Part shown: positions 11,001-27,243 of the stretch, one piece after another
Numbering within the stretch: position 1 is the stretch's first letter
Layout of the letters: every line of letters starts with the position of its first letter
Assembly (NCBI GenBank): GCA_018646625.1
Contig: JABGUJ010000003.1
Location: 1-64,000 of the forward strand
Direction of reading: 5' to 3'
DNA length: 64,000 bases
DNA from: Candidatus Woesearchaeota archaeon
GTDB taxonomy: Archaea > Nanobdellota > Nanobdellia > Woesearchaeales > JABGUJ01
Position numbers and translations under genes: made by a program
Notes under the pieces: model-generated
Told to the model about the DNA's origin: nothing
Databases searched by the model: none
What the model saw: the letters and a program-made list of their open reading frames with translations, nothing else

Positions 11001-14000
11001 TAAACGCAGGAACAATAGAATCCAGAGTAAATGACACTGTCGAACTATTAACAGCACCAGCACTATCATTCACCCACACAGTTACATTATGATTGCCCTC
11101 ACCCCAGACCACAGAAGTAATATTAGAACAATTAGTCAAAGTATAATTGCTTTGCATAGTATCATTAGAATACCAACAACTATCTAAGTTAGTATCAGAA
11201 ACATTAAACTCAACATCCAATCCAGAATCAACAACATTCGCACCACCAGACGGAGACACAATACTCAAAGAAGGATTAACAGAATCCAAAATAATTGATC
11301 TAGTAGAAGTATAGTTCAAATTACCAACAGTATCTAGAACTGAAACATTATAATAATACAACCCATCAGACAAAGAACTAAAATTAATAGTCCTAATGCC
11401 TGCCTTTTTAGTTTGAGAACTCAACACATCTTCACTAGAATTATAAAGTGAAAATGTAATATTTGCTTCATTAGCATCACTCGCACTAACATTAACATAT
11501 ATCCAGGACTGTATCCTATAAACACCATCAGCCTCCGCGCCAGATGCATAATCAATAGAAGGCGTAGTTGAATCTATAGTATAATTACGAGTCTCAGTAT
11601 AATTTTTATTAGACAAAGTATCATTCGCACTTGCATTCATGAAATAATCCCCATCCAACAAAGAGCTAAAATTATAAGTTAATGAAGATGATTGAGCAAG
11701 AGTAGAATTTATCAAATCACCACTAGAATTATACAAGTATACAGCAATAGAGTCAAACCTCATGTCAGATGCACTAACATTAGCGTAAACATAATCAACA
11801 GCATAGTCTCCGGATGAAGTTGTATCAGACTCAAACGCAACTAAAGGTGCAGTATCATCTATCTCTAAGCTCAAAGTATTTGAAGAATTACATCTAGTAT
11901 CATCACAAGCAGTCGCATTATAATAATACACACCATCGACTAATGATGTAAAGTTAGCAGAATAAGGATTCTCACCGCCTTCAGAAGTATTCACCAATCC
12001 ACCTGTTGAATTATACAATCTGACAATTAAAGTTGTCACACCACTATCCGAAGAGTTAACTCTCGCATAAACCCAATCCCTCGAATAATTACCAGTATCA
12101 GGACTCATAAAGTTAACATCAGGATATCTCGTATCGTCAACTGCAAATGTAGTTGTAGTTATATTACTATTACCAGCATCATCTTCAGCATACAATGAAA
12201 TAGTATATGTCCCTAAAGCAATTAATTCCACATCAGTCAAATTAACAGTTCCAGATGAAGATGAAGAATTATAAATCACATAGCCACTTGCCAAAGTAAC
12301 ATTCATCACAACATTATTAACATTATTTTCAGCCACACTCCAATTAATCATAACATAATCTTCACCAAACTCTAGACTAGATGCATTTCTCCATACAGAA
12401 ACCAAAGGATTTGTTACATCTAAGAACATCGCCCTAGTCCCAGTTGCACTAACATGACCATAAGAATCATTAGCAGTCGCATTAACATAATAAAGACCTT
12501 CAGAAAGACCAGATACATTCAACGACAACACCCCAGAAGTTGTATTAGTGGTATTAATCAAATCAAGACTTGAATTATAGAAATCCAACACGATAGCATC
12601 CAAATAAAGATCACTGGCAGTCACATTCATAGAAATATAATCTTGCGATAAATTATCCGCAGAAGTTGAAGGAGAAACAAACGAAATCACAGGACTTGTT
12701 CTATCAATTGTAAAGTTGCCTGATTCAGTAATAGCATTTGAAGCATTATCCCTACAAACAACACTAAAGTTATAGAAATCCTCGCCAAAATTAGTAAATG
12801 TATAATCACAGCCAGAACCATTATCACAAATAACTTGCTGCACCACTTGACCAACAGTAACATTACAAAGCAATGATGTAGATATGTTATCACTTACAGT
12901 CCAATTAAATACTACAGAAGAATTATCAATAAATTGTCCAGACTCAGGAGAATATACAACCACCACAGGAGATGTCTGATCTAAAACAAATTGAACAGAA
13001 GTTGAGACAGCATTAGGAACAATATCTCTACCATAAACTGTCAGATTATAATACCCATCATCATTACCATCAACATCAAAACTGTCGTTCCAAATATGTT
13101 CTTCAACAGGACTACCATAAGCTGAAGAATTATACTGTATTGTGGCGCCCGAAGACTCGCTCGTTATATTGTAATATGTATAGTTAAAAGAGTTATCCTG
13201 AACAATAACATTCATTGTAAAGTTCGAGTTATAAAACTTAAGAGCTGACGTAGGTTCAACATACTGCATTACAGGTCTCGCATTATCAAGATTAAATGAA
13301 ACATTATTTGTAGCAACATTACCCAAAGTATCATTTGCATACACAACTAAAAGAATATCCCACGCAACACCAGGATAACCTGAAGAATCCCATAATGAAT
13401 CCCAGTCCGAAGAATCATTCAAAGTACCATTAGCTAACTGTTGACTAGTATCCGTACCATTGTAAACAAAATACCAACCAGAACTAACATTAGACAACGC
13501 ATCCACAATATCCGTAGTCACATAAATTTGATAACCTACAGTCTCGTTATATGCGGGAGACTCAATAGATATCACAGGACCAACCGTATCTACAGTTAAA
13601 GTTCTAGTCTCACTAACATTAGTATTGCCAGCCTCATCAATACAAGATACATACCAAGAGTATTCTCTTCCCGAAAAGTTAGTAGCAGTTACAGTCGTAT
13701 TAACATCAGGCTGAACAGACTCATTCAAAGCTGCCAGCTCATACGTAACAGATGCCTCAACATCCCTATAAACACTACAGTTAGCAGTCGAATCTTCAGT
13801 TAGATTAAATACAAAATCAATTGAAGAAGATCCAGTAATATATTCATCATCAGGAGCATAAAGAGTTATACCAGGCTCATCATTATCTAAATAAATTGTC
13901 CTAGTCTCTGAAAATCCAACATTACCACTCTCATCAACTGCAGAGGATGCATTAAGATAATATACGCCATCGCTTAAATTTGTAAACTCAAGATAAATTT

Positions 14001-17000
14001 GATCATCCGTAGTAAAATTAGAATACAATACACCACTATCATTATACAAGAACACAGTCATATTCACATAATAATAATCAGTCGCAGTGACATTAGCTAA
14101 AATTACTGAGCCATTAGAATAACCCGCACTATGAGACGGAGAAACAAAGTGCAATACAGGCGCAGTCAAATCTAGAATTGTAACATTCCAATGTTCAGTA
14201 TCATTTCTGATTGAAGTATCTTGACCAACTTCAGCATAAGCAAAGAAATCGTAAGAAGTATTTAATCTGCCAGTCGCATTAACAAAGAAGGTCACTATCT
14301 GACTCTCAGACTCATTCAGATTAATAGTATAAGGATTAGTTGACATATTAGTGTAGAATGGAACAGTACCTGCAACAGTAGATATTGTACCCTTGTCAGA
14401 ACTCACACAAACACCATTTGAATAGGATAAACAAACATCATCTAATATCGCTTCTCCATGATCACCGGTACCACCATCACCTGTCCAAACTTTAATTCTC
14501 AAATTTTTATTCTTTAAACTATCATTCAGCGCCACAGTCTTATCTGTTAAAGTACCTAGCTGATAGATGTTATTATCTTCACATCCACCCCAAACCTCAT
14601 CTGACGCACCCCAACTACCAGTGTAAGGACACCTATATTCTAACAATTGATAATTCTCACTCTCATTACCGTCTTCATAAAGCATCAAACCATATCCCCA
14701 CTCATCATACTCATACGCTTTGAAATTGTAAGTAACATAGTCAGCATTTGCTAAAAACGCATCCGAATAAATATATGACTTCCACAAAGTATTTCTAGAA
14801 CCACCATAGGTTGATTTAAAATCCAACCAATTACCCTTATCACCAAAAGGATTAGTCGCAGTACTAACCTCGGCACGCTCATACGTGCCATCGGCAACTT
14901 CATAATAGGTCCAACCAGGAATATCTGTACAAGTTCCGTCCGCACCACTACAATCCCCAGTCAAACTAAAATCACAATTAGATATAGGACCACAATCAAT
15001 ACCACTTAAAGGATCCAAAGTAACATTCACATCACCACAATCCGCACCAGTACAACTAACATTCAGAGTAACATTAAACCAATAATATTGTGAAACAGAA
15101 GTACTTCCAGGAGGATACACCACAGATATACCAACATAAGGTCTTGCCAAAACAATAGTTCTAGACGTAATATTAACATTTCCTGATGTGTCAGTTGCCG
15201 TCACATTAACATAATAAGTCCCATATGGCAAGTCAGTTAATTGTATGTAAGAATCACTTGTGCTATTCATCAAACCAGTAGAATTATACACATTAACTAA
15301 AAGAGTATCAAGATATAAATCAGAGGCACTCACATTCACAGTGATTGTAGTAACTAAGTTATTCATTCCAGCATCAGTCGTATCATTCCCAAATTCCAAA
15401 CTAGGATTAGTTAAATCCAATATAGTGACATTCCACGTAGAACTAACGTCAGATATAGGAATTGGAAAATCAGTAGTATTTGCATAAACAAAGAATTCAT
15501 GTTCACTACTCAAATAACCCGTAGCATTAACCCAGTAACTCACCAGAGTACTCTCATTCTCACTCAAACTGATATTATACGGATTTGTAGTATTAGTAAA
15601 GAAAGGTACTGCAGAACTATCCATAGATATTAATCCACTTTTAACAGGAGCGTTCGAAACTAAAGTAACGTTATCAACCCAACCTTGATCACTACCTCCA
15701 ACCGAACCAGAATCTTTAGCATAATACCAAAGCAGAGTATGCGTGCCTGCACTTAACTCATAAGTTACTTGCGTCCAGTCTACAGTTCCAGATATGCCTG
15801 AAACAGTACCATAACCAGTATCACCAAACCTTCTACACCCAGCAACCCCATAACTTAAGTCCACACAAAATCCTAAATAATCATATGAAGACTCACTAGA
15901 AACCTTCCACATAAAACTCAAATTAGTATCTTCATATATAGTCACATCTTGAGTCAACAAAGAATACTCACTATGACCTATCGCACCAGTCTCCGCAGAA
16001 TAGTTACCAGAACTAACTACAGTCCCTTGCAATGACCAATTAGCATCCCCGCTTCTACTCCAGCCAGTAAAGTCATTAGTTTCAAAGTCACCATTAGTCA
16101 CTGCATCAAACGTAACAGGATCTAAACTAACATTTATCGCACCACAATCCATTTCCACACAACTAACGTTTACAACAACCTCAAACATCTGACCTGCAGA
16201 AACGTTAATTTCCGAAGAAGATGGAGTAATAATTTCCAAACTAATCTCAGGAGCATCTACAGTAAAATCAACATACTCCGAATTGTTCCAATTATCTTGC
16301 CAATCAAAGCAATAAACATTAGCAGTATAATCATTTCCCGCTTCAACACTTAGATTTGAAGTAAAACTAGTATTAGAAACAACAACAGACATGGTATAGT
16401 TCGTAGTACCATTATCTAGACTATAATAACAAGTAGTATTCTCATCAGTTGTTACATTTAACTGAACTAAAGTTGTAGAGTAATTAAATAACGCATCTCG
16501 CGAAGGCGCATCTATAGTAACATTCGGTACAGTAACATCTTGATTTGTAATATTAACATAGATCTGTGCATAATTCTCATTACCTATAGTATCATTAACT
16601 GTTAGATTAATCCAGTAAATACTTTCATTCAAAGAGGATGCATTCGTTAAATAACCCGTACAATTGATAGTAAACTGCGCTGTATCATTCACACTAAAAC
16701 AATCTATACCACTAATGTCATAAGCATCAAAGTCATTACTCCATGGCGGTCCATACTGTTTTGTTAAATTCTCAAGATCGGTAAAGACAGGTAAGGTTGT
16801 ATTCGTTACATTCACAGTAACAAACTCCGAAACAAGATTATTCGAAGTATCATTCACAGTAATATTCAAAATATACATACCTAGTTCCAAGAAAGTATTA
16901 TTCGTCAACACACCTGAGCAATTGATTGTAAAATTACCATCATCTACAGTAAAACAACTTAAGTCGTTATAATCAGATGCATTAACATCATAAGACCAAG

Positions 17001-20000
17001 TATAATTATATTCTAAAGTTAAGTTATCTGTATAATTAAATACTGGAGAAGTAGTATCGATTATAGTAACATTCCAGATTTCAGAAGTATTTCTTATAGT
17101 CAAATCATCCAATCTATCAGCATAAACAAAGAATTCATGCTCAGTTTCAATTCCGCCGGTAGTATTTACATACCAAGTAATGACTTGCGAGTCGCCTTGA
17201 CTCAAATTAACCATATAAGGATTTTGCACAGTAGTATAGAATGGCGTCGCACTAGTATTCATAGAAACAGTACCTTTACCTGATGCACGAGATATGGTAA
17301 CATAGCCATCATCCGAATTAGCTCCTTCAGAATTATTCTGATTTGTTCCATTGTTATAAGAACCGCCACCGCCACCAGCATAATTGTCACTATAGCCGCC
17401 ACCGCCACCAGAATAACCACCAGCACCACCACCGCCATGCCAACCATTGCCGCCACCGCCGCCAAAGCCACCAGGACCATTAGTTGAAGCAGTACCACCA
17501 GCACCACCTAATATAAATGCAACACCTCCAGTACTACGAGAGCCAGCAACACCACTACCATAATATCCTGCACCACCTGAACCACTAAAACTTCCAGTAC
17601 CCTTACCAGCACCATTACCATTAGTCCCCGCATTACCTGCAGAATTCCAACCATCAGTACCGTTAATACCAGTCACACCATCCTTACCATATTGGGTTGA
17701 ACTCGAACCACTAGAATCACCGCCACCGCCACCAGCCACTACTAAAGGAGTTGCGTCGGAATAATGAGTACCGGCAGCAACAAAAGTTCCACCACCGCCG
17801 CCACCATAACTAGTACACACACCTTTCTGACCAACAAGAATTTGTAAAACCTCTCCACCAACAAAATCAAACTCACCCGAAATTACTGCACCATCACCAC
17901 CATCAGTACAACCACCTTTTGCACCCGCAGCTTCAATAATATATGTTCCAGATTGCGGTACAGTCCAATTCTGAATACCACTATAGACCTGAACGTCACC
18001 ATCTAACAAAGTATCAGCATAAACAGAATCGCAACTAGCCTGTAAAGGTCCCGTTCGCCCCGTCACACCACAAGATGTAAAATTATAAATTGTTCCTGAC
18101 TCAGGATCTAAAGTAACATTAACATTACCACACTCATTATCGATACAGCTCACATTAATAGTGACATTAAACATCTCAAACTGAGAAGCATTCATGTGAG
18201 TAGTCGGATACAACACTTCTAAGTTCAATCGACCTTTATCTGTAACATTAATCCAGATAAGTGTATAATTCTCATTTCCAGAGGAATCATTAATAGTAAC
18301 ATTTAACCAATACAATCCAACAATACTTTGATTCATTTCAGTAACATTGCTAATAAAACCAGAACAGTTAACATCAAACACAGATGTATCATTCAAACTA
18401 AAACAACTCACACTAACATAATCACTTGAATTAATTTGATAACCATAGAAATCATCTTCATATATGGTTTGGTTTGTAAAATTAATAAACACGGGAGAAG
18501 TTCTATCTAATGTCAAATAAATCATACTGGTATTCACATTTCCATAAGTATCATTAGCCCAAACAGTAATATTACGATAAGACTCGGGCCACAATATAGA
18601 TGTAATATTTTCACAACCAACAAGAGTTATATTCTCTTCACCAGTATTATTCCTATACCAACAACTATCCAAGTTCAAGTCATACACACTATAATTAATA
18701 TCTAACCCGCCATCATTTGAGAAAGTATTGTTCAAAGGGTAAGTGATGTTCAAAGCCGGAGCAGTAGTATCCGTAATATTAACCCACATCAGACTCCAAT
18801 TAACATTATTAACTGTATCATTAGAAGTAATATTTAACAAATAGAACCCAACGGCCAACCAAGTATTATTCTGCAAATAACCCGAACAATTTATTGTGAA
18901 ATTAGTAGTATCATCAACAGTAAAACAACTAACGTTGTTTGAGTCTGTCGCATTAACATCAAAAGTAAACAACTCACCATACTCGTGAGTCACATTTGCA
19001 ATATATGATGAGTTAGTTATATTCACAAAGTATGGAGGAATTGTATCCGTTACATTTACCCACATAACATTTGAGAAATTGTTATTCGCAGTATCATTAA
19101 TTGTAATATTCAACCAATATACACCATTACTCAATTCAGTTGCATTAGTCAACACACCAGAACAAGTTATACTAAAATTAGTGTTATTAACAGCAAAACA
19201 ACTTACATCATTCTCGTCGCTCGCATTAATATCATAAGAAATACCATAAGCATGCTCCACAGTTTGATTTGAGAAGTTAGTAAACTCTGGCTCAGTCCAG
19301 TCAACAATAATCAACCTCTCGATAGTATTATTCAAATTACCATAAATATCAGAAGCATACAAATTATAAGTATAATTACCCTCCACCAGATCATCAGTAG
19401 CATTCAAACTCTGATTAACATAGAAATACCAATCATTTGCACCATATTTATTCAGATTAGAAACATATTGAATATAAACCTCATCGGCAGTTAAACTTCT
19501 ATTCCAAATTCGAACTTCATCTATAGTTCCATTAAAATAAGAAGAGCCAGCACCCACCCATTGATCTTCGCCTATAACTATAGGATTTGAGTTAGAAGGA
19601 ATAGCATCGGTTTTGGATGAAACACCAACAAGCACCCCATTGGAATAAAACCTAACATTTGTTCGATCATAAGTCACAGTAAGATGATGCCATCTTCCAA
19701 TCTCCAAGTCAGCATCAGTAGAATCAGAATCCCACAATCCAGGAATTGTAAATCTCAACTCATCAAGACTAACAGTGCTAGTATGAAACGCAAAAGCATC
19801 CTCTTTGGATAAGAAAGAAAAATCATTAGAAAGATTGTTAATATTTACCCAGACACTTAGAGTAATATTGCCAGAAATATTCAAACTCGAGCTACTCTCG
19901 ATTTCAACAGAATCGTCAACACCATCAAAATCAAATGCACCACCATACTTTCCACCAGATAGATTAAAAACAGATCCATTAACAACACCATCATTACCAT

Positions 20001-23000
20001 AATCACTAACATCAACAACATAACTATCATTCTCACCTAGTGCAGAAACATTATCAAAATTATACATTAAGACCAGAGAATCATTCCAAAAAGTATGGTT
20101 TGTACCATTCCAATCATAGTAAATATAATCCAATACGAATTCATTAATCGAAGCATTAACTAAGAAAGATCTTTCAGGTTGCCTAGTATTATTTGCAGGC
20201 GTTGGTGAGACAAAGCTCATCGCAGGAGGAGTTGTATCAAGAGTAATTTGTCTAGTTTCGGTTGAATTAGTATTATCTGCCGTATCGATCGCGGTAGCAT
20301 TGACATAATAAGTAGCATCAGTTAAGTTAGTGAAATTAACAAAGAACGGTGAAGAAGAATCACTTGAAGAAGTCACCAGACCACCAGTAGTGTTATAAAT
20401 TCCCACAACAATATTCGCAAGATGTGAATCTGAAGAACTTACGTTCACTGCAATCCAATCATTAGGATAAGTTCCATTACTCAATGTTGGAGATTCATAA
20501 TCAAGAGAAGGAGTCGTATCATCATCAATTGTAACATTCCAAGTAGATGTTATATTACTATTTGACAATCTCGAAGTTTTATTAGCAAATACAAAAAATT
20601 CATATTCATCAGTACCATCACCAGTAGCATTAACATAAAAAGTCACAATCTGACTCTCACCAGATAACAAACTAATATTATATGGGTTAGATGATTTATT
20701 AGTATAGAACGGAGTTTCTGAAATATTTGTTGAGATCAAACCACCTTTACCTGCTTCATAAGTAACGTTTTCTCTCACATAAATATAATACCATTCAGAA
20801 TCCGCAGGCCCTGCCAAGTAATTTTCACCACCAATACAACCTATATCGTTATTCCAGTCACCAGCAGGATTATATGTAGAAAATACAGCCCTATCATTTG
20901 CTTCAGGATCACCATCACCATGCCAGATCTTAATCCAATCATTTGTAAAGTAACTGCCTGAACGATTATAACTATCATAACTACCCCGCAAGCCAGTGTT
21001 CCAAGCACCACCTGTATTAGGCCCTGGATTAGGACCTGTAAGATTAATAAGTGCATCATAAGTCACATTAAGATGAGCCAGAATCATGCCATCTGTTGAA
21101 TAAGTTGACTCTAGCATTAAATCATCTACTGGCACAGAATCATATGCCGCACTTTTTCCTTGAGATGTTTGGTTTACCGAAGCAGTCGTGTAACCTTCAG
21201 TGAACCAACCAGCCCATGTTGATTTATGCGTGCTTGATGATCCTTGACTTGCAAATACCATTGTCCATCCGCCAGAATCTGTAGTCATGTCGCAATATAC
21301 TTCAATCGAAGATGAATTTTCATCGAATGGATATATAGTATAGATACCATCCCCTTGACTTTGACCTATGTCCAGTATCTCCTTACAAGAAACTGGAGTA
21401 CCAAGCGGATCTAAACTAACATTAATCTCTCGACAAGGAACCAAACTATCACATGAAACATTAACTGTAACATTAAAGAACTCATTTTGCGTCACATTAG
21501 TATGGTTCGTAGGATAAATCAAAGATAAACCAATTCTAGAATCCAACACAACAGTCCAAACTTCTGATTGATTTGAGTTCCCTTCAGTATCATTAAAGTA
21601 CCAAGTCCAAGATATCGGGCTCGAAGTTATGTTCTTAACAACACTAAGTTCCTCCCCACTACTAAAGCCTTGAGAAGTATCATTTATCCAATCGGTCCCA
21701 TTATAAAAACTAAAGATGTATTCGCTAGGAGAAGTATCATTTGCACTAATATTGAAATAAGCATCCTGTCCAAGATCAAAACTACTTGTCAAATTAGTTT
21801 TATTATCATACCAAAGAGGAGCACCGACTGGTTTAATAGTTACATTCCATCTTGAAGAAGTTTCTGAATTAGACATCTTTTCCGTTCTATTAACATAAAC
21901 AAAGAATTCATGTGTAGTTTCGATATAACCTGTAGCATTAACCCAAAAAGTCACAAGTTCACTTTCGCCATCACTTAAACTAATATTATATGGATTAGAT
22001 GATTTATTTGTATAGAAAGGCGTTGCAGAAGTATTAGTTGAAACAACTCCTGTTTTAATTGGAGCAGTCAATATAATAGTTACATAACCTTGACCAGTAT
22101 TATATCCGCCAACATTATATTGGCCAGCCCCACCATTATACGAACCACCGCCACCAGCACCAGCACTACTCGTGCCGCCACCACCGCCGCCAGAGTAGCC
22201 ACCGCCACCACCAGCAGAACCATAATAGCAATGTTCACCACCTGCGCCACCACCAAAGCCACCATCTCCACTATTAGTAGTACACTCAGTACCTCCTGTT
22301 CCACCATTAACAAATGCCAAACCCCCGGTTGAAGGAGAACGTCCATCATCACCATCAGTTGTCAAGCCACCGCCGCCAGAACCACCATTACCACTTGCCC
22401 CGGCAGAACCTCCAGAACCTGAAGTACCTCCCGAACTAGTTCCTTCTCCAGCCCTACCAGCAGTTTCATTAGACGCATCACTGTAACCGGAACGATCATT
22501 AGATGATGAATAAGCACCACCGCCAGCACCAGCAACAACTAACGGAGTATTATTAGAATAGACCACATAAGTTCCACCGCCACCACCAGAACCATAAGTC
22601 GCAGAGTCACCCCTCTGACCCACGAGAATCTGAACGACCTGACCTGCGTTTAAATAAAAAGTTCCATTTACCAAGGCACCTCTTCCAGGATAACTATTAC
22701 CACCACCTGCAGCACCTACAGCAACAATGGTATAACTGCCAGTAAAAGGCACAGTCCAATTTTGAATACCACTCGACACAGTAACTAAACTTTCTAAAGT
22801 AGTATTAGAGTACTCAGAGTCACAATTTCCTTGCGATGGTCCACTCCTCCCAGTCGAAGTACAAGTTGTAAAATTATAAACAGTAGTAGACTCAGGATCT
22901 AGAGTAACATTCAAGTCACCACAATCAAACCCAACACTACAGCTAACATTAACAACAACATCAAAACCTAAGTTCTGAGTCACATTAACATTCCCTGATG

Positions 23001-26000
23001 GAGAAATAACTTCAACACCAATTACAGCATCCAACAATAAACCCCAGACATCTGATTGATTACTATTACCTTCAGTATCATTAAAGTACCAAGTCCAATT
23101 AATCATACTCCCCGTAATATTTTTCAGAACAGATAACTCCTCACCATCGGTATAATTAACAGCAGAATCATTCACCCAACCAGTACCATTATAGAAGCTA
23201 AAAATATACTGACTAGAACTACTTTCATTCACAGTAATATTAAAGTAAACGGTATCACCATAAGAAGTTGAATCAGATAAATTAGTTTTATTCAAACTCC
23301 AAGTCGGAGCAACATAGTCACCTTCAACAATCGTAATATTAAGAATCTCGCTAGTATTTGATTGAGATTCATCATAAGTGATATTGGCATGAGCAAAGAA
23401 CTTATACACATCGTCCGAAGAACCTGTAACATTCACCCAGAACTCAATTTCTCTACTCTCACCAGCACTCATAGAAGATAAAGTGACTGGATTAGTCGAA
23501 CTATTTGTCCAAAATGGAGATGAATTAGTAGTAGACAACACACCATCGCTTCTAGGAGTATAATCTATTCTAATGTCATCCCAAGCCATACCATCGTTAG
23601 GCCAAGCAGTATTATCATATTGAGTAAACTTAATCTTAAAATTCTCATCAAGAGTACCACAAAAATCAGGATCAACAGTAACATTAATTGTTTGTTGAGT
23701 CCAACTAGTAAAACTCTCAGGAGCATTCATCAAATGATACCATAAAGTACCATCGCAGGTATAATAAACCGCATCCGATGTATGGCTCTGTCCAGAGTGA
23801 TCTCCACCCAGATTTAACTCATCACCATCATCGGACTCTCTCCAATAAAAATCAAGATAAACATAATCATGTCCTGTAAAATCATAACCAGTTATTAACT
23901 CATTCACACTTGTACTCCCATCAGCCACATTAGCCAAGACAGAGTACCCTCCAGAATATGCAGTCGTATCATTCACATCAATATAACCATTACCATCACT
24001 ACTATACGTGGTCCAGTCATCACCTACAAATGCGCCAGTATCAAAATTATCAAAGAAATAGAAATTGTCAGAATCTAAAGTAACATTAACATCACCGCAA
24101 TCTTCCTGCCCTGTGCAAGTTACATTAAAAGCCATACGATACATTCTCGCTCGAGTAGCGTTAGCATTAGAAGATGGAGTCACAAAAGAGACAGAAACAC
24201 TGGAATTAACAGGTTCAATAACAGACAAAGATCTTTCTTCGGTAGATAAATTAGATACGCCCTCAACAAAAACCTGATAAGTATAGTCACCAGTTGCTAA
24301 TTCATCTGTAGCATTCTTACTCTGATTAACATACAAATACCATTGCGTCGAGCTAAATTTGTTTAGATTTGAAACATATTGTTGATAAACTTCATTAGCA
24401 GTTAGACTTCGGTTCCAAATTCTAACTTCATCTATGTGACCATCAAAACCATTAGATTGCGAAGTACTAGATGCCCCTATAATAAGATTATCATTTATAT
24501 CGTCATCGCTATCAGTTGCTGCAGAACCTAAAAAATCCCCATCATAATAAGTTATTTTATTTGTACCATTATCTACTACTACAACATTATGCCATACATT
24601 TGGTGTTGGTTCATCATATTTGTTCATTCTATTACCTATTTGAGTTGTTAATAAATACTCACCAAGCGTACTATCAAGCCAGATATGGTAACCATCTCCC
24701 CCACTTCCTGCCGAACCTTTGGATAATATGTAAGAATTGCTAGAAGAACCATCCCAATTAAACCAAAGCTCAATTGTCATAGGATCTGTTAATCTTAAAC
24801 TCACATCATTTCCACAATCAACATAATCACCACTAGCATCAAACTCAAATCCACCATCATGCTTCCCACTTAAATCAGGACCAGAATCGGAATCAGGTAA
24901 AACACTAAAAGTCCCATTATTTTCATTCCCACTCAAATCCAAAATATTAGTATTGTTTTCTCCAAGAGAACTAACATTATCAAAGTTATACATCAAAATC
25001 AAAGAATCATCATACATAGTATAGTTAGTACCATTCCAATTATAAACAACAGAAGACAACCCACCCTCAACAATCGAAACATTTACCTCAACAGAAGTAT
25101 TTATTGTAGAAGACCCATTCGATAAAGTTGGAGAAACAAACTCAACAGAAGAATCTAAGAGAGAAACACTCCTCACATCAGTTTCATTAGAATTACTAGA
25201 ACCGTCCTCAACAAACACCTGATAGGTATAACCCCCATAATTCAAATCATCAGTTGCATTTTTACTCTGATTAACATACAGATACCATTGACTAGAATTA
25301 AACTTATTCAGATTAGAAACATATTGTTGATAAACATCTTCAGAAGACAAAGCCACATCCCAAATTCTCACTTCATCAATTGAACCATTAAAATAAGCAT
25401 TCTGCCAAATAGTTGTACCAACACGCAAATAATTATCAACCAAACTGTGACTTACAAAAGAACCAAGAGAATCTGTCTTGGACAACAAACCATCAATATA
25501 AGTCTTAACCTGCGAACCATCATTCACCCACACAACATAATGCCAGTCATCTTCACTTATAGATACAGAAGAAGCTGTAGCGAACCAATCACCCACAGAA
25601 CCTTGTCTCATCGCAAAAGAAATATTACCCCCCACAGACACACTAGTCTCCAAAGTATACGTGCCTGAAGAACTCCCATCATTTCCTAAACCAAGTATAT
25701 AACGACCAGTATCATTCTGCCTTGTTGAAATCCACACAGAAATTGTATAATCATCTCCCGCACCAAAATCTAAACCCGCATCTGAGTTAAAGATGACATC
25801 ATCAACACCATCAAAATCATATCCACCACTATACTTGCCAGAAGAATTAAAACTAGCTCCAATAACGGTACCTCTAAGATCAGATATTGAATTATCAACC
25901 ACCATCAAAGGCGCAGCAGAAACATTACCAATACTATTCAAAGAACCAGAAGTCTGTAGATGAACTGCGTTTGTAAAATCACCTGAAGTGTAGATCTCTT

Positions 26001-27243
26001 TTCTAACAGTACCCGCACCATCTGTTATAACAATATTATCCAAATATCCTGTATAAGTCCCTGTAGAATCTGCCTCGCAAACAACATCATAATATTGAAT
26101 AGTTTTACCAACATGACTAACCGGAAGTGCAATAGTTCTATGATACCATTTATTGAGGGCATAAGCAGAAATATCCGTACTAGGATGAGAACTTAAACCA
26201 TTCTGATCAACACCAGAAGATCTCAACTCAGTAGCATCAGAATTAGTATAATCAAAAGCAATCTCATCACTCGAACTAGTCCAATAAATATCATACTCAA
26301 CATAATCCCCAGACTGAATAACATAATCCGTAACGCTGCTCAAATCTTCATAATGGTACGCATTAGCATTATTAGTCATAGAAAATGAAGCATTGATGAC
26401 TTCCTGCTCATCAGAGTCATCTAAATTCATCATTAAAACCAATGAATCATTATACATTGTATGATTAGTTCCATTCCAATTATAAATCAAAGAATCTAAA
26501 TCCTCCTCAATAATGGAAACATTAACTTCAACAGTTGTTACAGATTGACTATCACCATCATCAGGAGTTGGAGAAACAAACTCAATCAAAGGATTAGCAG
26601 AAGAGGAAGCAACTTGATAAAGCACAGGTAACTCAAAACAATTTATATCACCAACACAATCATCATCATCACAATCTTCCTCGCCATCAAAATCATTATC
26701 TCTTAAATCATCACAAATTCTTTCAACTTCATCTTCAGATTGACAATCTGCACTTTTCAAATCTTCTCCTTGACAACAAATCCAATCATCTTCATCTTCG
26801 TCGCAAGGCACACACAAACTATCAGAACAATAAGTTCCATCCCAACAATCATCTCTAGCACTACACTGACACTCTTCATTCAAAATACAATCAGCATCTT
26901 CACAGTCTGTAAAGTAATCGTTATCATTATCAGTTCCGTCTTGACAGTTAGTCTCAACATCTAATCCACAATCTCCACCACGTTCACCATTACAACAGAT
27001 ACCATCATCCGCCCATAAACTACACTCTTCACAAACATTATTATCAGAACAATAAAACGACTCACTACAATCATCATTACTAGAACAAACATCAACTAAG
27101 GGTTCTTCTATAGGAACATTAAAACCATAAAAACTAGAATTAGACACATTATCATCAAGAGCAGAAACAACATTCACAGGCTGTACGGACATAGAATAGA
27201 GTATAAATAGTAACAAGATCACTCTACCCAGATTCACTGGCAT
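8050..27243 (-). CDS. Giant modular cell-surface protein, 6397 residues
   Basis: Signal peptide (1-29); Asp/Cys-rich region with DNDFDGEEDCDD-type segments (about 52-200); three LamG-like lectin modules (about 448-644, 748-965, 2394-2601); six copies of a scaffold module with inserts, including two Gly-rich domains and a fibrinogen-like domain; nine Cys-paired repeats of about 85 residues; many Ig/cadherin-like repeats with NxS/T sequons throughout; a Cys-rich CGDGLCxxY...CPNDCGVC motif (about 6218-6249); one transmembrane helix (about 6299-6328) and a Lys-rich cytoplasmic tail. The topology is extracellular with a C-terminal anchor. A role in attachment or the cell envelope is inferred. The ATG follows GGGGTGG by one base; GTG 27237 is an alternative start. 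TATA-like elements lie at 27297-27309 and 27321-27333. Confidence 0.9.
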   Translation of the reverse strand: MPVNLGRVILLLFILYSMSVQPVNVVSALDDNVSNSSFYGFNVPIEEPLVDVCSSNDDCSESFYCSDNNVCEECSLWADDGICCNGERGGDCGLDVETNCQDGTDNDNDYFTDCEDADCILNEECQCSARDDCWDGTYCSDSLCVPCDEDEDDWICCQGEDLKSADCQSEDEVERICDDLRDNDFDGEEDCDDDDCVGDINCFELPVLYQVASSSANPLIEFVSPTPDDGDSQSVTTVEVNVSIIEEDLDSLIYNWNGTNHTMYNDSLVLMMNLDDSDEQEVINASFSMTNNANAYHYEDLSSVTDYVIQSGDYVEYDIYWTSSSDEIAFDYTNSDATELRSSGVDQNGLSSHPSTDISAYALNKWYHRTIALPVSHVGKTIQYYDVVCEADSTGTYTGYLDNIVITDGAGTVRKEIYTSGDFTNAVHLQTSGSLNSIGNVSAAPLMVVDNSISDLRGTVIGASFNSSGKYSGGYDFDGVDDVIFNSDAGLDFGAGDDYTISVWISTRQNDTGRYILGLGNDGSSSGTYTLETSVSVGGNISFAMRQGSVGDWFATASSVSISEDDWHYVVWVNDGSQVKTYIDGLLSKTDSLGSFVSHSLVDNYLRVGTTIWQNAYFNGSIDEVRIWDVALSSEDVYQQYVSNLNKFNSSQWYLYVNQSKNATDDLNYGGYTYQVFVEDGSSNSNETDVRSVSLLDSSVEFVSPTLSNGSSTINTSVEVNVSIVEGGLSSVVYNWNGTNYTMYDDSLILMYNFDNVSSLGENNTNILDLSGNENNGTFSVLPDSDSGPDLSGKHDGGFEFDASGDYVDCGNDVSLRLTDPMTIELWFNWDGSSSNSYILSKGSAGSGGDGYHIWLDSTLGEYLLTTQIGNRMNKYDEPTPNVWHNVVVVDNGTNKITYYDGDFLGSAATDSDDDINDNLIIGASSTSQSNGFDGHIDEVRIWNRSLTANEVYQQYVSNLNKFSSTQWYLYVNQSKNATDELATGDYTYQVFVEGVSNLSTEERSLSVIEPVNSSVSVSFVTPSSNANATRARMYRMAFNVTCTGQEDCGDVNVTLDSDNFYFFDNFDTGAFVGDDWTTYSSDGNGYIDVNDTTAYSGGYSVLANVADGSTSVNELITGYDFTGHDYVYLDFYWRESDDGDELNLGGDHSGQSHTSDAVYYTCDGTLWYHLMNAPESFTSWTQQTINVTVDPDFCGTLDENFKIKFTQYDNTAWPNDGMAWDDIRIDYTPRSDGVLSTTNSSPFWTNSSTNPVTLSSMSAGESREIEFWVNVTGSSDDVYKFFAHANITYDESQSNTSEILNITIVEGDYVAPTWSLNKTNLSDSTSYGDTVYFNITVNESSSSQYIFSFYNGTGWVNDSAVNYTDGEELSVLKNITGSMINWTWYFNDTEGNSNQSDVWGLLLDAVIGVEVISPSGNVNVTQNLGFDVVVNVSCSVGFDCGDLNVTLDPESTTVYNFTTCTSTGRSGPSQGNCDSEYSNTTLESLVTVSSGIQNWTVPFTGSYTIVAVGAAGGGNSYPGRGALVNGTFYLNAGQVVQILVGQRGDSATYGSGGGGGTYVVYSNNTPLVVAGAGGGAYSSSNDRSGYSDASNETAGRAGEGTSSGGTSGSGGSAGASGNGGSGGGGLTTDGDDGRSPSTGGLAFVNGGTGGTECTTNSGDGGFGGGAGGEHCYYGSAGGGGGYSGGGGGGTSSAGAGGGGSYNGGAGQYNVGGYNTGQGYVTIILTAPIKTGVVSTNTSATPFYTNKSSNPYNISLSDGESELVTFWVNATGYIETTHEFFVYVNRTEKMSNSETSSRWNVTIKPVGAPLWYDNKTNLTSSFDLGQDAYFNISANDTSPSEYIFSFYNGTDWINDTSQGFSSGEELSVVKNITSSPISWTWYFNDTEGNSNQSEVWTVVLDSRIGLSLIYPTNHTNVTQNEFFNVTVNVSCDSLVPCREINVSLDPLGTPVSCKEILDIGQSQGDGIYTIYPFDENSSSIEVYCDMTTDSGGWTMVFASQGSSSTHKSTWAGWFTEGYTTASVNQTSQGKSAAYDSVPVDDLMLESTYSTDGMILAHLNVTYDALINLTGPNPGPNTGGAWNTGLRGSYDSYNRSGSYFTNDWIKIWHGDGDPEANDRAVFSTYNPAGDWNNDIGCIGGENYLAGPADSEWYYIYVRENVTYEAGKGGLISTNISETPFYTNKSSNPYNISLLSGESQIVTFYVNATGDGTDEYEFFVFANKTSRLSNSNITSTWNVTIDDDTTPSLDYESPTLSNGTYPNDWIAVNVSSSDSHLANIVVGIYNTTGGLVTSSSDSSSPFFVNFTNLTDATYYVNATAIDTADNTNSTETRQITLDTTPPAMSFVSPTPANNTRQPERSFLVNASINEFVLDYIYYDWNGTNHTFWNDSLVLMYNFDNVSALGENDSYVVDVSDYGNDGVVNGSVFNLSGGKYGGAFDFDGVDDSVEIESSSSLNISGNITLSVWVNINNLSNDFSFLSKEDAFAFHTSTVSLDELRFTIPGLWDSDSTDADLEIGRWHHLTVTYDRTNVRFYSNGVLVGVSSKTDAIPSNSNPIVIGEDQWVGAGSSYFNGTIDEVRIWNRSLTADEVYIQYVSNLNKYGANDWYFYVNQSLNATDDLVEGNYTYNLYASDIYGNLNNTIERLIIVDWTEPEFTNFSNQTVEHAYGISYDINASDENDVSCFAVNNTNFSITCSGVLTNATELSNGVYWLNITINDTANNNFSNVMWVNVTDTIPPYFVNITNSSYIANVTHEYGELFTFDVNATDSNNVSCFTVDDTTNFTINCSGYLQNNTWLAVGFYLLNITSNDTVNNVNWSLMWVNITDTTAPALNITYPLNNTFSNDGGLDINYSVYDLNLDSCWYRNNTGEENITLVGCENITSILWPESYRNITVWANDTYGNVNTSMIYLTLDRTSPVFINFTNQTIYEDDFYGYQINSSDYVSVSCFSLNDTSVFDVNCSGFISNVTEMNQSIVGLYWLNVTINDSSGNENYTLIWINVTDKGRLNLEVLYPTTHMNASQFEMFNVTINVSCIDNECGNVNVTLDPESGTIYNFTSCGVTGRTGPLQASCDSVYADTLLDGDVQVYSGIQNWTVPQSGTYIIEAAGAKGGCTDGGDGAVISGEFDFVGGEVLQILVGQKGVCTSYGGGGGGTFVAAGTHYSDATPLVVAGGGGGDSSGSSSTQYGKDGVTGINGTDGWNSAGNAGTNGNGAGKGTGSFSGSGGAGYYGSGVAGSRSTGGVAFILGGAGGTASTNGPGGFGGGGGNGWHGGGGAGGYSGGGGGYSDNYAGGGGGSYNNGTNQNNSEGANSDDGYVTISRASGKGTVSMNTSATPFYTTVQNPYMVNLSQGDSQVITWYVNTTGGIETEHEFFVYADRLDDLTIRNTSEIWNVTIIDTTSPVFNYTDNLTLEYNYTWSYDVNASDYNDLSCFTVDDGNFTINCSGVLTNNTFLELGMYILNITVNDTSNNLVSEFVTVNVTNTTLPVFTDLENLTKQYGPPWSNDFDAYDISGIDCFSVNDTAQFTINCTGYLTNASSLNESIYWINLTVNDTIGNENYAQIYVNITNQDVTVPNVTIDAPSRDALFNYSTTLVQLNVTTDENTTCYYSLDNGTTNYTMSVVVSNTSFTSNLSVEAGNDYTANVYCFDWQDNWNNSEYVDFTVDAPEISLEIITPSSSEINVSAGQMFEVVVNVSCVEMDCGAINVSLDPVTFDAVTNGDFETNDFTGWSRSGDANWSLQGTVVSSGNYSAETGAIGHSEYSLLTQDVTIYEDTNLSFMWKVSSESSYDYLGFCVDLSYGVAGCRRFGDTGYGTVSGISGTVDWTQVTYELSAGTHTLLWYYAKDSGSVGGSDQGWVDNVTLVSNAPVKSGLISMDSSAVPFFTNTTNPYNISLSENESTLVSYWVNATGYLSSEHEFFVYANTTDFPIPISDVSSTWNVTILDLTNPSLEFGNDTTDAGMNNLVTTITVNVSASDLYLDTLLVNVYNSTGLMNSTSDSYIQLTDLPYGTYYVNVTATDTSGNVNITSRTIVLARPYVGISVVYPPGSTSVSQYYWFNVTLNVSCTGADCGDVNVTLDPLSGIDCGPISNCDFSLTGDCSGADGTCTDIPGWTYYEVADGTYERAEVSTATNPFGDKGNWLDFKSTYGGSRNTLWKSYIYSDAFLANADYVTYNFKAYEYDEWGYGLMLYEDGNESENYQLLEYRCPYTGSWGASDEVWGGCEDNNIYQLGTLTDKTVALNDSLKNKNLRIKVWTGDGGTGDHGEAILDDVCLSYSNGVCVSSDKGTISTVAGTVPFYTNMSTNPYTINLNESESQIVTFFVNATGRLNTSYDFFAYAEVGQDTSIRNDTEHWNVTILDLTAPVLHFVSPSHSAGYSNGSVILANVTATDYYYVNMTVFLYNDSGVLYSNFTTDDQIYLEFTNLSDGVYYLNASSAVDESGNVGFSETRTIYLDNDEPGITLYAPDDEYITGSSSIDFVFNLTEDSTANCSVYRDVEASVTYELAALNESVQPDVNTTVTATNFSGREYSWYVSCIDEAGNTNVSETRTLTVDTVGPVISIESPAYNETVGYQIYVTTDIVDALSNVSSGWYFVYNGTDTSQQLANGTLNDSSDWDSLWDSSGYPGVAWDILLVVYANDTLGNVATNNVSFNLDNARPVMQYVEPTSALKFYNSNFTMNVIVQDNSFNYTYYNITSESSGATIQYNSSAYGSPVEEHIWNDSFDVDGNDDGYYNLTVYGRDIVPNAVSTSVQFVLDQTSPVVVVYSPESGQFIDNSSVVFNWTVSDNISTSLLCNVTVGQVVQQVICDNGSGCDYTFTNFGEDFYNFSVVCRDNASNAITESGNFTIDRTSPVISFVSPSTSADNLSQDYISMNVTASDLYLDAIVLDFYNSSLDLINTTNTTSGVLSLNVSGLSEGLYYVNATANDSYGHVSATGTRAMFLDVTNPLVSVWRNASSLEFGEDYVMINWSVAENNVNNVVMNVTLASGYVIYNSSSSSGTVNLTDVELIALGTYTISLYAEDDAGNSNITTTTFAVDDTRYPDVNFMSPDTGNYSRDWVYARVNSSDSGVTTLIVRLYNSTGGLVNTSEGGENPYSANFTSLVDGVYYYNATACDDTRCNSSNTLSLEIDDTAPLVAFESDTTSSGDYAVDYVYANVSASDMRFDSIAVYLYNSSGDLINSTLAQSSSLTYNFSSLLDGDYFMNASANDTLSNKNYTETRNYTIDSTTPSIDYASGAEADGVYRIQSWIYVNVSASDANEANITFSLYNSSEDVLSSQTKKAGIRTINFSSLSDGLYYYNVSVLDTVGNLNYTSTRSIILDSVNPSLSIVSPSGGANVVDSGLDVEFNVSDTNLDSCWYSNDTMQSNYTLTNCSNITSVVWGEGNHNVTVWVNDSAGAVNSSTVSFTLDSIVPAFTDIGNVTIEYETALGYDINATDANGIGCFSVDDTSNFAINCSGYLINNTLVSSGQHWINVTVNDTFGNTASNLMWVNVSGTVVTVNVLYPLTTSYTSNVAVLNYSVSGDEIRDKCWYSLDNGSTNSSLISAGVNFTSLTSSEGSNTWTVYCNDTYDNQGTDFVTFFKDSVAPAFTAMGNQTIEVGSSLSYDINASDVNGVSCFVVNDSDFSINCSGYLSNATGLSLGTYWLDVTINDSYGNENTNTMSVTVEDSVAPVITVIENQTVEYGVGLGYDLNATDAQGVSCFAVNDSDFSINCSGYLSNATLLGVGLYWLNVTVNDTSDNEAYGLMWVNVTDTTAPVFTAIDNQTVEVGSIFNYDVNATDANAVSCFAVDDGNFSINCSGYLSNATGLVTGVYTLNISVNDTSSNDAYGAVWVNVTDTVSPSISVVYPLNNTMYLVNVTQFNYSVSDLGTLDSCWYDNGSVNSSAVSAGQNFTNVSNLQGWNNLTIYCNDSLNNFGNDSVRFLMDTVAPNVTLNSPADSYYNGSAPRVNLTFNCSVEDNYQLSNVSLYITNALNTSFGLNNETTVGGAVNESTWNLTLTHGNYTWACFVEDFAGNSNWSENRSIMINFTDVDNDDIKDDVDNLIGTEINVNTTGVDDLNITVDGNATNGTYGGLREVVFYDESDAVINFTHNFTNSTLDLRDVTLIVTDTYVIINMSGQLQANKTLYITDNSFISLCVKDEEVAAISAMSSGCAGSNETDFTDCLGANLTTGNLTCTDLGSTIMIEGLENSAVRGTQAAPSSPAASSDTSSGSSGKSQRRLVCGDGLCSDYVNESCSNCPNDCGVCKLDKSASDDLVAGVEGEISQSGSSDLEPGDVDVYDDSLDIKNDDGLIAISVIGGVCKSSIGWFVLLLLLTLIALLTLLGYLLRNHHRVAKLIGVVRTFVGKYHVLDNSSHAGRYVVERKSIRAKSNKKKIVKKPKRKSARKKTKKKTSKKK
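9725..11020 (-). repeat. Four copies of the Cys-paired 85-residue repeat (giant protein, C-terminal cluster)
   Basis: Within the giant protein, units begin near 11020, 10490, 10235 and 9980. Each has the pattern NQTVE, then YDINATDANxVSCF, NDSDFSINCSGYLSNAT, YWLNVTVNDT and MWVNVTDTTAP. The two Cys (SCF and NCSG) are invariant and probably form a disulfide. The units resemble HYR/cadherin-like beta-sandwiches. The last three are tandem and the most alike, suggesting recent duplication. A Trp/Cys-containing Ig-like unit separates the first from the second. Confidence 0.8.
14160..15130 (-). repeat. Scaffold module 6 with an inserted jelly-roll-like domain (giant protein)
   Basis: The N half (VYPPGSTSV ... 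NVSCTGADCGDVNVTLDP) and C half (GTISTVAGTVPFYTN ... FVNATGRLN ... WNVTILDLTAP) flank an insert of about 200 residues containing CTDIPGWTYYEVADGTYER and ILDDVCL, which looks like a carbohydrate-binding beta-sandwich. Approximate residues 4038-4361. Confidence 0.65.
15420..16245 (-). repeat. Scaffold module 5 with an inserted CBM-like domain (giant protein)
   Basis: NVSCVEMDCGAINVSLDP precedes an insert that starts NGDFETNDFTGWSRSG and ends WVDNVTLVS, typical of carbohydrate-binding-like jelly rolls. The C half resumes at GLISMDSSAVPFFTN and ends WNVTILDLTNP. Approximate residues 3667-3941. Confidence 0.65.
16545..17045 (-). repeat. Two copies of the Cys-paired 85-residue repeat (giant protein, middle cluster)
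   Basis: Two tandem units (LSCFTVDDGNFTINCSG and IDCFSVNDTAQFTINCTG) lie between scaffold modules 4 and 5. They share the Cys pair and the WxN(I/L)TVNDT end of the other copies. Confidence 0.75.
17065..18230 (-). repeat. Scaffold module 4 with the second glycine-rich domain (giant protein)
   Basis: NVSCIDNECGNVNVTLDP precedes a Gly-rich insert (DNA 17280-17960) with ILVGQKG, VVAGGGGG and repeated GGGG. The C half resumes at GTVSMNTSATPFYT. The insert is paralogous to that in module 2 (shared TSCGVTGRTGPLQ-like start and QILVGQ). Confidence 0.7.
18240..19290 (-). repeat. Three copies of the Cys-paired 85-residue repeat (giant protein, N-side cluster)
   Basis: Units begin near 19285, 19040 and 18500. 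A different Ig-like unit (LNITYPLNNTFSNDGG) separates the second and third. The Cys pair and NDT/MWVN(V/I)TDT signature are shared with the six other copies. Confidence 0.75.
20530..21530 (-). repeat. Scaffold module 3 with an inserted fibrinogen-like domain (giant protein)
   Basis: NVSCDSLVPCREINVSLDP precedes a fibrinogen C-terminal-like domain (DNA about 20750-21400): SCKEIL, YTIYPFDENSSSIEVYCDM, DSGGWTMVFASQG and WNNDIGCIGG. The C half resumes at GLISTNISETPFYTN. Fibrinogen-like domains are mainly known from animals and some bacteria, where they bind glycans or proteins. Confidence 0.75.
21835..23015 (-). repeat. Scaffold module 2 with the first glycine-rich domain (giant protein)
   Basis: NVSCSVGFDCGDLNVTLDP precedes a Gly-rich insert of about 220 residues (DNA 22080-22740) with IVAVGAAGGG, QILVGQRGD and GGGGGYSGGGGGG. 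The C half resumes at GVVSTNTSATPFYTN. The insert resembles the glycine-rich domain family found in some bacterial surface proteins. Confidence 0.7.
23320..24210 (-). repeat. Scaffold module 1 with an inserted jelly-roll-like domain (giant protein)
   Basis: NVTCTGQEDCGDVNVTLDS precedes an insert (FDNFDTGAFVGDDWTTYSS to MAWDDIRIDY) resembling a MAM/CBM-like beta-sandwich. The C half resumes at GVLSTTNSSPFWTN and ends LNITIVEGD. Approximate residues 1012-1305. It is the most divergent of the six copies. Confidence 0.6.

What the first reader, a model, noticed from the sequence alone, without database searches (positions are those of the whole stretch)
14160..24210. One scaffold module recurs six times, each with a separate domain inserted at the same site
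Each module opens with NVSC...CGxxNV(T/S)LDP and closes with G(x)(I/V)ST...PF(Y/W)TN...NPYxIxL...(V/I)xxxxVNATG...(F/Y)xFF(V/A)(Y/F)A...WNVTI. Between the halves sit, in order, a jelly roll, a Gly-rich domain, a fibrinogen-like domain, a second Gly-rich domain, a CBM-like domain and another jelly roll. The split module acts like a socket displaying exchangeable binding domains, an architecture I do not recognise as a described family.
Basis: partly seen in the sequence, partly recalled or inferred. Interest (0 to 1): 0.85.

Follow-up and report, generated by a model that had tools for sequence, protein, structure and literature searches.

The report
Archaeal split-domain socket displaying varied domains
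A giant surface protein of a tiny (Woesearchaeota-type) archaeon carries six copies of one small immunoglobulin-like domain, each opened at the same loop to hold an inserted domain; related archaea use the same loop to carry protein-digesting enzymes, lectin-like domains, propellers or nothing at all, so it looks like a general-purpose display socket.

Summary
Observation confirmed. window:8050-27243(-) encodes one 6397-aa, membrane-anchored, probably N-glycosylated surface protein of a Woesearchaeota-type archaeon. It holds six copies of a ~118-aa scaffold, each interrupted at one site (after strand C, 'N-V-[ST]-L-D-P') by a 160-282-aa domain. The scaffold has no Pfam, NCBIfam or PDB sequence match. 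Interpretation largely supported: uninterrupted ('empty') scaffolds exist, one beside filled sisters in the same protein. The empty one is predicted as a single Ig-like sandwich (pLDDT 94.9, pTM 0.84; nearest solved folds complement C3/C4), with the insertion point in the C-C' turn. It occurs in 82 of 288 genomes sampled from the order. 89 modules read show insert lengths from none to ~1000 aa in about 38 sequence clusters: nine subtilases, beta-propellers, ALK/LTK-like Gly-rich, fibrinogen-like, ThuA-like and others. So the socket takes enzymes as well as possible binding domains. Two corrections: the same protein has a second, unrelated socket type (three LamG domains inside another split Ig-like domain); and the principle is known, as 'split Ig-like domains' of bacterial RTX adhesins. 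This is a separate archaeal version, with a different insertion point and far wider cargo. Verdict: new variant of a known kind. Ligands and exchange mechanism are inferred.

The parts
8050..27243 (-). whole gene: 6397-aa surface protein (signal peptide, two socket types, Ig-like stalk, C-terminal TM, basic tail)
27154..27243 (-). N-terminal signal/hydrophobic segment (aa 1-30)
   Evidence: hydropathy
25153..26607 (-). second socket type, copy 1: split Ig-like domain (aa 213-697) with LamG region inserted (aa 265-646)
24214..25170 (-). second socket type, copy 2 (aa 692-1010) with LamG inserted (aa 745-961)
23329..24204 (-). socket module 1 (aa 1014-1305); insert 23545-24069 (175 aa, jelly-roll-like by eye, no significant family)
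21835..23028 (-). socket module 2 (aa 1406-1803); insert 22051-22893 (281 aa, ALK/LTK glycine-rich-like)
20527..21540 (-). socket module 3 (aa 1902-2239); insert 20743-21405 (221 aa, fibrinogen-like GGGWT)
19294..20244 (-). second socket type, copy 3 (aa 2334-2650) with LamG inserted (aa 2387-2598)
17062..18234 (-). socket module 4 (aa 3004-3394); insert 17275-18102 (276 aa, Gly-rich, related to module 2 insert)
15421..16248 (-). socket module 5 (aa 3666-3941); insert 15637-16116 (160 aa, CBM_4_9-like at E 0.079 only); full module modelled
15151..15420 (-). uninterrupted relative of the LamG-type socket (aa 3942-4031)
   Evidence: hmmsearch iE 2.3e-6
14176..15141 (-). socket module 6 (aa 4035-4356); insert 14392-15009 (206 aa, no significant family)
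9094..14175 (-). stalk of tandem Big_13-type Ig-like domains (about aa 4357-6050)
   Evidence: Pfam Big_13 E 2.2e-24, six stretches
8254..8370 (-). C-terminal hydrophobic/TM region (aa 6292-6330)
8053..8253 (-). short Lys/Arg-rich C-terminal tail, presumed cytoplasmic
   Evidence: sequence

Best explanation
A lineage-specific split Ig-like 'socket' domain on giant cell-surface proteins of Woesearchaeota-type archaea. SHOWN (sequence or prediction): strands A, A', B and C are encoded first; then, at the C-C' turn (after N-V-[ST]-L-D-P), an independent domain is inserted; then C', D, E, F and G complete the sandwich. The protein begins with a signal segment and ends in a TM helix and a basic tail; Ig-like domains make the stalk; six inserts, plus three LamG domains in a second type of split Ig-like domain, are carried along it. 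INFERRED: because both ends of the cargo enter and leave through one turn, the cargo projects sideways from a rod that stays continuous, so cargo can be gained, lost or swapped without breaking the rod. A disulphide between the two invariant N-half Cys and dense N-glycosylation probably stabilise it. In this protein the cargo (LamG, fibrinogen-like, ALK/LTK-type Gly-rich, jelly-roll-like) most likely makes a multivalent adhesin that contacts polymers or a host or partner cell. In a second giant protein of the same genome and in several related genomes the same socket carries a subtilase, i.e. surface-tethered proteolysis.
For: Six alternating N/C halves, chance excluded. Naturally empty scaffolds. 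AF2 of the empty copy: pLDDT 94.9, pTM 0.84, strands E4-11, 21-24, 28-38, 43-51 | 57-59, 65-69, 74-83, 90-99, 106-108, 112-117. Foldseek to the PDB: complement C4/C3 chains TMq 0.66-0.67, E 3e-4 to 6e-4. Filled module 5: halves about 90 pLDDT with matching strands, insert about 35; single Ig-like chains of 107-142 aa align across 277-284 columns of it, i.e. over the insert (weak). N- and C-half divergence correlate (Mantel r 0.66, p 0.0002). Insert lengths 25-875 aa in 59 split pairs against 13 continuous copies. About 38 insert clusters in 89 modules. Subtilases at the site with Asp/His/Ser motifs, most with an I9 propeptide. Sister scaffolds with different inserts. C-terminal TM; 381 N-x-S/T against 132 expected; STT3 homologue in the genome. 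The same mechanics are solved experimentally in RTX adhesins (PMC12077191).
Against: No experimental structure. The filled-module model has an unmodelled insert, pTM 0.51 and no PAE, so its orientation is unknown. Ligands are unknown, and three of the six inserts have no significant family assignment. Part of the Mantel correlation would arise from shared descent even if the halves did not touch. The scaffold tree is poorly resolved (6 of 86 branches starred), so the number of insert exchanges is uncertain. In the longest 'inserts' (over about 500 aa) a missed intermediate half could inflate the length.
Confidence: 0.8

Rival explanations
1. The two halves are independent small domains that flank unrelated domains; N-C pairing reflects duplication of a larger unit.
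For: Short motifs alone would not distinguish the two; the halves always travel together, as a duplicated unit also would.
Against: Continuous copies without anything between the halves exist in about a dozen genomes and fold as one sandwich. The N-half alone (three to four strands) is not a known fold, and the duplicated unit would have to change its middle many times (about 38 clusters).
Confidence: 0.05
2. The scaffold is a structural or S-layer stalk element and the inserts are neutral passengers accumulated in a tolerant loop, without selection for display.
For: Great insert variety, including unassigned sequences and short hydrophobic 'GNLITG' inserts; empty versions persist.
Against: Many inserts are whole conserved domains; subtilases keep catalytic motifs and most keep propeptides; the same cargo types recur on divergent scaffolds (10 Gly-rich, 9 subtilase).
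Confidence: 0.12
3. The protein is a SPEARE-like DPANN attack protein (protease + adhesion + nuclease), and the socket is one of its building blocks.
For: Giant, membrane-anchored, LamG-rich DPANN protein; SPEARE-like sequences are reported in Woesearchaeota (PMC6642349); a sister protein in the same genome carries a subtilase in the socket.
Against: The window protein has no protease and no restriction-endonuclease domain (Pfam scan), and its tail after the TM is only about 67 aa.
Confidence: 0.05

Closest known systems
Split Ig-like domains of bacterial RTX adhesins (MpIBP, FrhA, AhLap; PMC10865825, PMC12077191)
   Same: An Ig-like sandwich interrupted in sequence, with a ligand-binding domain budding sideways from a long Ig-like rod; adjacent N and C termini of the cargo; several sockets per protein.
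   Different: No RTX repeats here; archaeal, with signal segment and TM anchor; in the FrhA unit the break follows a single first strand (12 aa) whereas here it follows strand C. The cargo range is much wider, including enzymes, propellers, short hydrophobic segments and none. I did not test sequence relation to RTX split domains directly; the scaffold has no significant PDB sequence match.
SPEARE proteins of Nanohaloarchaeota (PMC6642349)
   Same: Giant membrane-anchored DPANN surface proteins with LamG and, elsewhere in this family, subtilase domains.
   Different: No protease or nuclease in the window protein; no split scaffold is mentioned in the passages read.
Macroglobulin-type Ig-like domains of complement C3/C4/A2M
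   Same: Best Foldseek match of the empty scaffold (TMq about 0.66).
   Different: 12-16% identity; fold similarity only; no claim of homology.
Adhesin-like proteins of Methanobrevibacter and Methanosphaera (PMC11532034)
   Same: Large archaeal surface proteins, some with Ig-like assignments.
   Different: A text search of that paper found no mention of split or inserted domains.
Integrin alpha-I domain
   Same: Known case of a ligand-binding domain inserted in a loop of another domain (general knowledge; PMC12422189 seen as title and abstract only).
   Different: Single cargo type in a beta-propeller, not a repeated Ig-like socket with many cargos.

Membership tests
Split Ig-like display domain (works-like class) | scaffold discontinuous in sequence around a complete inserted domain | tested here: met
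Split Ig-like display domain (works-like class) | the two parts together make one Ig-like beta-sandwich | tested here: met
   AF2 of the natural empty copy; Foldseek; filled module only indirectly
Split Ig-like display domain (works-like class) | cargo projects away from the rod and binds a ligand | not testable with these tools
   no PAE or coordinates, no binding assay
[quoted passage not shown]
   no repeat match in the protein; C-terminus is a TM plus basic tail
SPEARE | serine protease domain in the ectodomain | tested here: not met
   Pfam scan of P0001, (a different protein of the genome has one)
SPEARE | intracellular type III restriction-enzyme-like domain | tested here: not met
   only about 67 aa follow the TM
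SPEARE | laminin-G domains in the ectodomain | tested here: met
   Laminin_G_3
Existing Pfam/NCBIfam family for the scaffold | profile match to the N- or C-half or to the empty copy | tested here: not met

The most novel reading that the evidence does not exclude
A dedicated, order- to class-wide 'universal insertion socket': one Ig-like domain family whose C-C' turn has become a general landing site for whole domains (lectin-like, receptor-like, proteases, propellers, hydrophobic segments), with cargo exchanged by recombination between conserved flanking halves, so that these small archaea re-arm their surface by cassette swapping.
Probability: 0.35. Interest if true: 0.82.

Novelty: new variant of a known kind. 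Interest (0 to 1): 0.64.

Why it matters
Woesearchaeota and related small archaea are thought to live attached to partners, but how they recognise and act on them is mostly unknown. A recognisable scaffold marks where the functional cargo sits in otherwise unannotatable proteins of thousands of residues: find the two halves and whatever lies between is the exposed domain. That makes their surface repertoire, including at least nine socketed subtilases among the copies read here, listable and testable. It also shows an apparently separate archaeal instance of the split-Ig display principle of RTX adhesins, with much wider cargo tolerance, of use for understanding domain insertion and as a protein-display scaffold.

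Tried and rejected
Independent-domain reading: rejected by natural empty copies. Fragment-based alignments (N and C halves as separate rows) were useless because MAFFT stacked N on C; full modules aligned correctly. A first genome-contig scan with the spliced alignment failed because its pattern spanned the artificial junction; the C-half alignment worked. The insert of module 5 could not be modelled (pLDDT about 35), so its CBM label stays unproven. Existing families for the scaffold: none in Pfam, NCBIfam or PDB sequences. The tree of 89 scaffolds is too short (120 columns) to resolve exchange history; only a few supported sister pairs are used. Literature searches for an archaeal split Ig-like scaffold found none in the held library; subscription papers are not covered.

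Full report
WHAT IS THERE. The region lies in one minus-strand ORF, 8050-27243, 6397 aa. The genome is 1.57 Mb in 4 contigs. The protein has an N-terminal hydrophobic signal, a C-terminal TM and a basic tail, three LamG domains, a fibrinogen-like domain and a stalk of Big_13-type Ig domains. N-x-S/T sequons number 381 against 132 in shuffles, and the genome holds an STT3 oligosaccharyltransferase homologue, so heavy N-glycosylation is likely.

THE SIX MODULES. Six N-halves (about 44 aa, ending in N-V-[ST]-L-D-P) and six C-halves (about 72 aa, from G-x-[IV]-S-T to W-N-V-T-I) strictly alternate, with no orphan half at E<0.01. E-values are 1e-18 to 1e-34; 100 shuffles of the protein reach at most 2.9 and 5.3 bits. 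Spliced, the copies share 26 invariant columns, including two Cys that bracket the B-C turn of the N-half. Inserts are 175, 281, 221, 276, 160 and 206 aa. Inserts 2 and 4 are relatives of the ALK/LTK glycine-rich domain (PDB LTK E 2e-14; 55% identical to each other over 125 aa). Insert 3 is fibrinogen-like. Inserts 1, 5 and 6 are not assigned with significance.

ONE DOMAIN OR TWO? A profile of the spliced halves found the scaffold in relatives, and some copies are continuous. The most telling lies in L063 (Woesearchaeota SI047_bin129): one ORF holds modules with inserts of 306, 281 and 157 aa, a further N-half cut off by the end of the locus, and, among them, an empty copy (aa 705-819) whose halves are directly joined. 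That natural protein, aligned with 19 filled modules of the window and public loci, is predicted by AlphaFold2 as a single beta-sandwich, mean pLDDT 94.9, pTM 0.84; the joint lies between strand E43-51 (C) and E57-59 (C'). Foldseek places it with Ig-like domains of complement C4 and C3 (TMq 0.66-0.67) and other Ig-like folds. The full window module 5 is predicted with both halves at about 90 pLDDT and the same strand order, the insert unmodelled; several single Ig-like chains of 107-142 aa align over 277-284 columns of it, i.e. across the insert, which is weak support. N- and C-half divergences correlate across 37 modules (Mantel r 0.66, p 0.0002), as expected for co-inherited halves.

HOW WIDESPREAD, HOW EXCHANGEABLE. 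82 of 288 genomes of the order and 44 of 193 of a phylum sample carry the scaffold; all hits listed are in the same order or class. From the match tables, 59 split pairs (25-875 aa between halves, median 268, 35 genomes) and 13 continuous copies (12 genomes) were counted. Reading 89 modules gave 8 empty copies and 75 inserts over 60 aa that fall into about 38 clusters by phmmer. Cargo includes nine subtilases carrying Asp/His/Ser motifs, most with an I9 propeptide; one is in another giant protein of the window's own genome (L043), others in L052, L141-143, L146, L147, L150, L155. Others are PQQ, FG-GAP and delta-60 propellers, ThuA-like, nidogen-like, DUF2341, DUF4082, CBM96/DNRLRE, ALK/LTK Gly-rich (10 copies) and fibrinogen-like (2). 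Some sister scaffolds carry different cargo: L063_918 Gly-rich and L063_1410 a different insert (support 92), L052_1651 ThuA-like and L052_2072 subtilase (94), window modules 2 and 5 (82). The tree has few columns, so this is suggestive only.

A SECOND SOCKET. The three LamG domains of the same protein also sit inside a split Ig-like domain, of a different type: N-part up to W-N-G-T-N-x-T, C-part from W-Y-x-Y-V-N-Q-S-x-N-A-T-D. Its spliced model matches an uninterrupted domain at aa 3942-4031 (iE 2.3e-6). The protein thus carries nine inserted domains on two unrelated sockets.

MECHANISM. Shown: architecture, common site, empty state, predicted Ig-like fold, anchor. Inferred: cargo projecting sideways from a rod that stays continuous, and multivalent adhesion as the function here, by analogy with RTX adhesins, where split Ig-like domains project ligand-binding domains and crystal structures exist (PMC12077191; PMC10865825). 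Display of proteases in the same socket elsewhere suggests the socket is a general carrier and not a lectin module.

COMPARISON. It works like the RTX split domain but is not an RTX adhesin (no RTX repeats; TM-anchored), and the break is after strand C, whereas the FrhA unit breaks after one strand of 12 aa. It is not a SPEARE: no protease or nuclease in this protein, although size, anchor and LamG agree with SPEARE (PMC6642349). No sequence relative is solved.

UNEXPLAINED. One class of short inserts (26-43 aa in L128, L129, L138, L148, L153; similar in L055, L050, L062) is hydrophobic or amphipathic and most end in a recurring ITG/GNLITG-x-x-TG-like motif before the C-half; this fits neither a display domain nor an empty turn.

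LIMITS. All structure is predicted; no PAE; ligands unknown; MAG data; literature limited to open-access papers.

Noticed in passing
window:25153-26607, 24214-25170, 19294-20244 (-): Three LamG domains are themselves inserted in a second, unrelated split Ig-like domain; an uninterrupted relative lies at aa 3942-4031 of the same protein.
   Followed up: partly
L128, L129, L138, L148, L153, L055, L050, L062: Short (26-89 aa) hydrophobic or amphipathic inserts at the socket site, most with a recurring ITG/GNLITG-type motif just before the C-half; role unexplained.
   Followed up: partly
L043 (own genome, contig C3), aa 2115-3104 of the ORF: A second giant protein of the same genome carries the same socket with a subtilase inserted; the protein also has NosD/right-handed beta-helix domains.
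   Followed up: partly
window:36394-38220 (+): FtsY (SRP receptor) apparently fused to an N-terminal histidine-phosphatase domain (aa 91-227), close to eIF-6: unusual fusion.
   Followed up: no
window:46742-48307 (+): Hel308-like helicase that starts at the Helicase_C domain, lacking the first RecA half in this ORF: split or truncated gene.
   Followed up: no
L069 (JAVCCH010000072.1, labelled Ca. Tenebribacter davisii): A 9.7-kb contig in a bacterial MAG carries the archaeal socket protein; binning error more likely than transfer.
   Followed up: no
L072 (IMG/VR contig IMGVR_UViG_3300033150_001342): A contig classed as viral encodes the socket protein with an in-frame stop inside the insert; probably archaeal sequence misclassified as viral.
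   Followed up: no
window:22051-22893 and 17275-18102 (-): Archaeal relatives of the ALK/LTK receptor glycine-rich domain (E 2e-14 to LTK in the PDB).
   Followed up: partly
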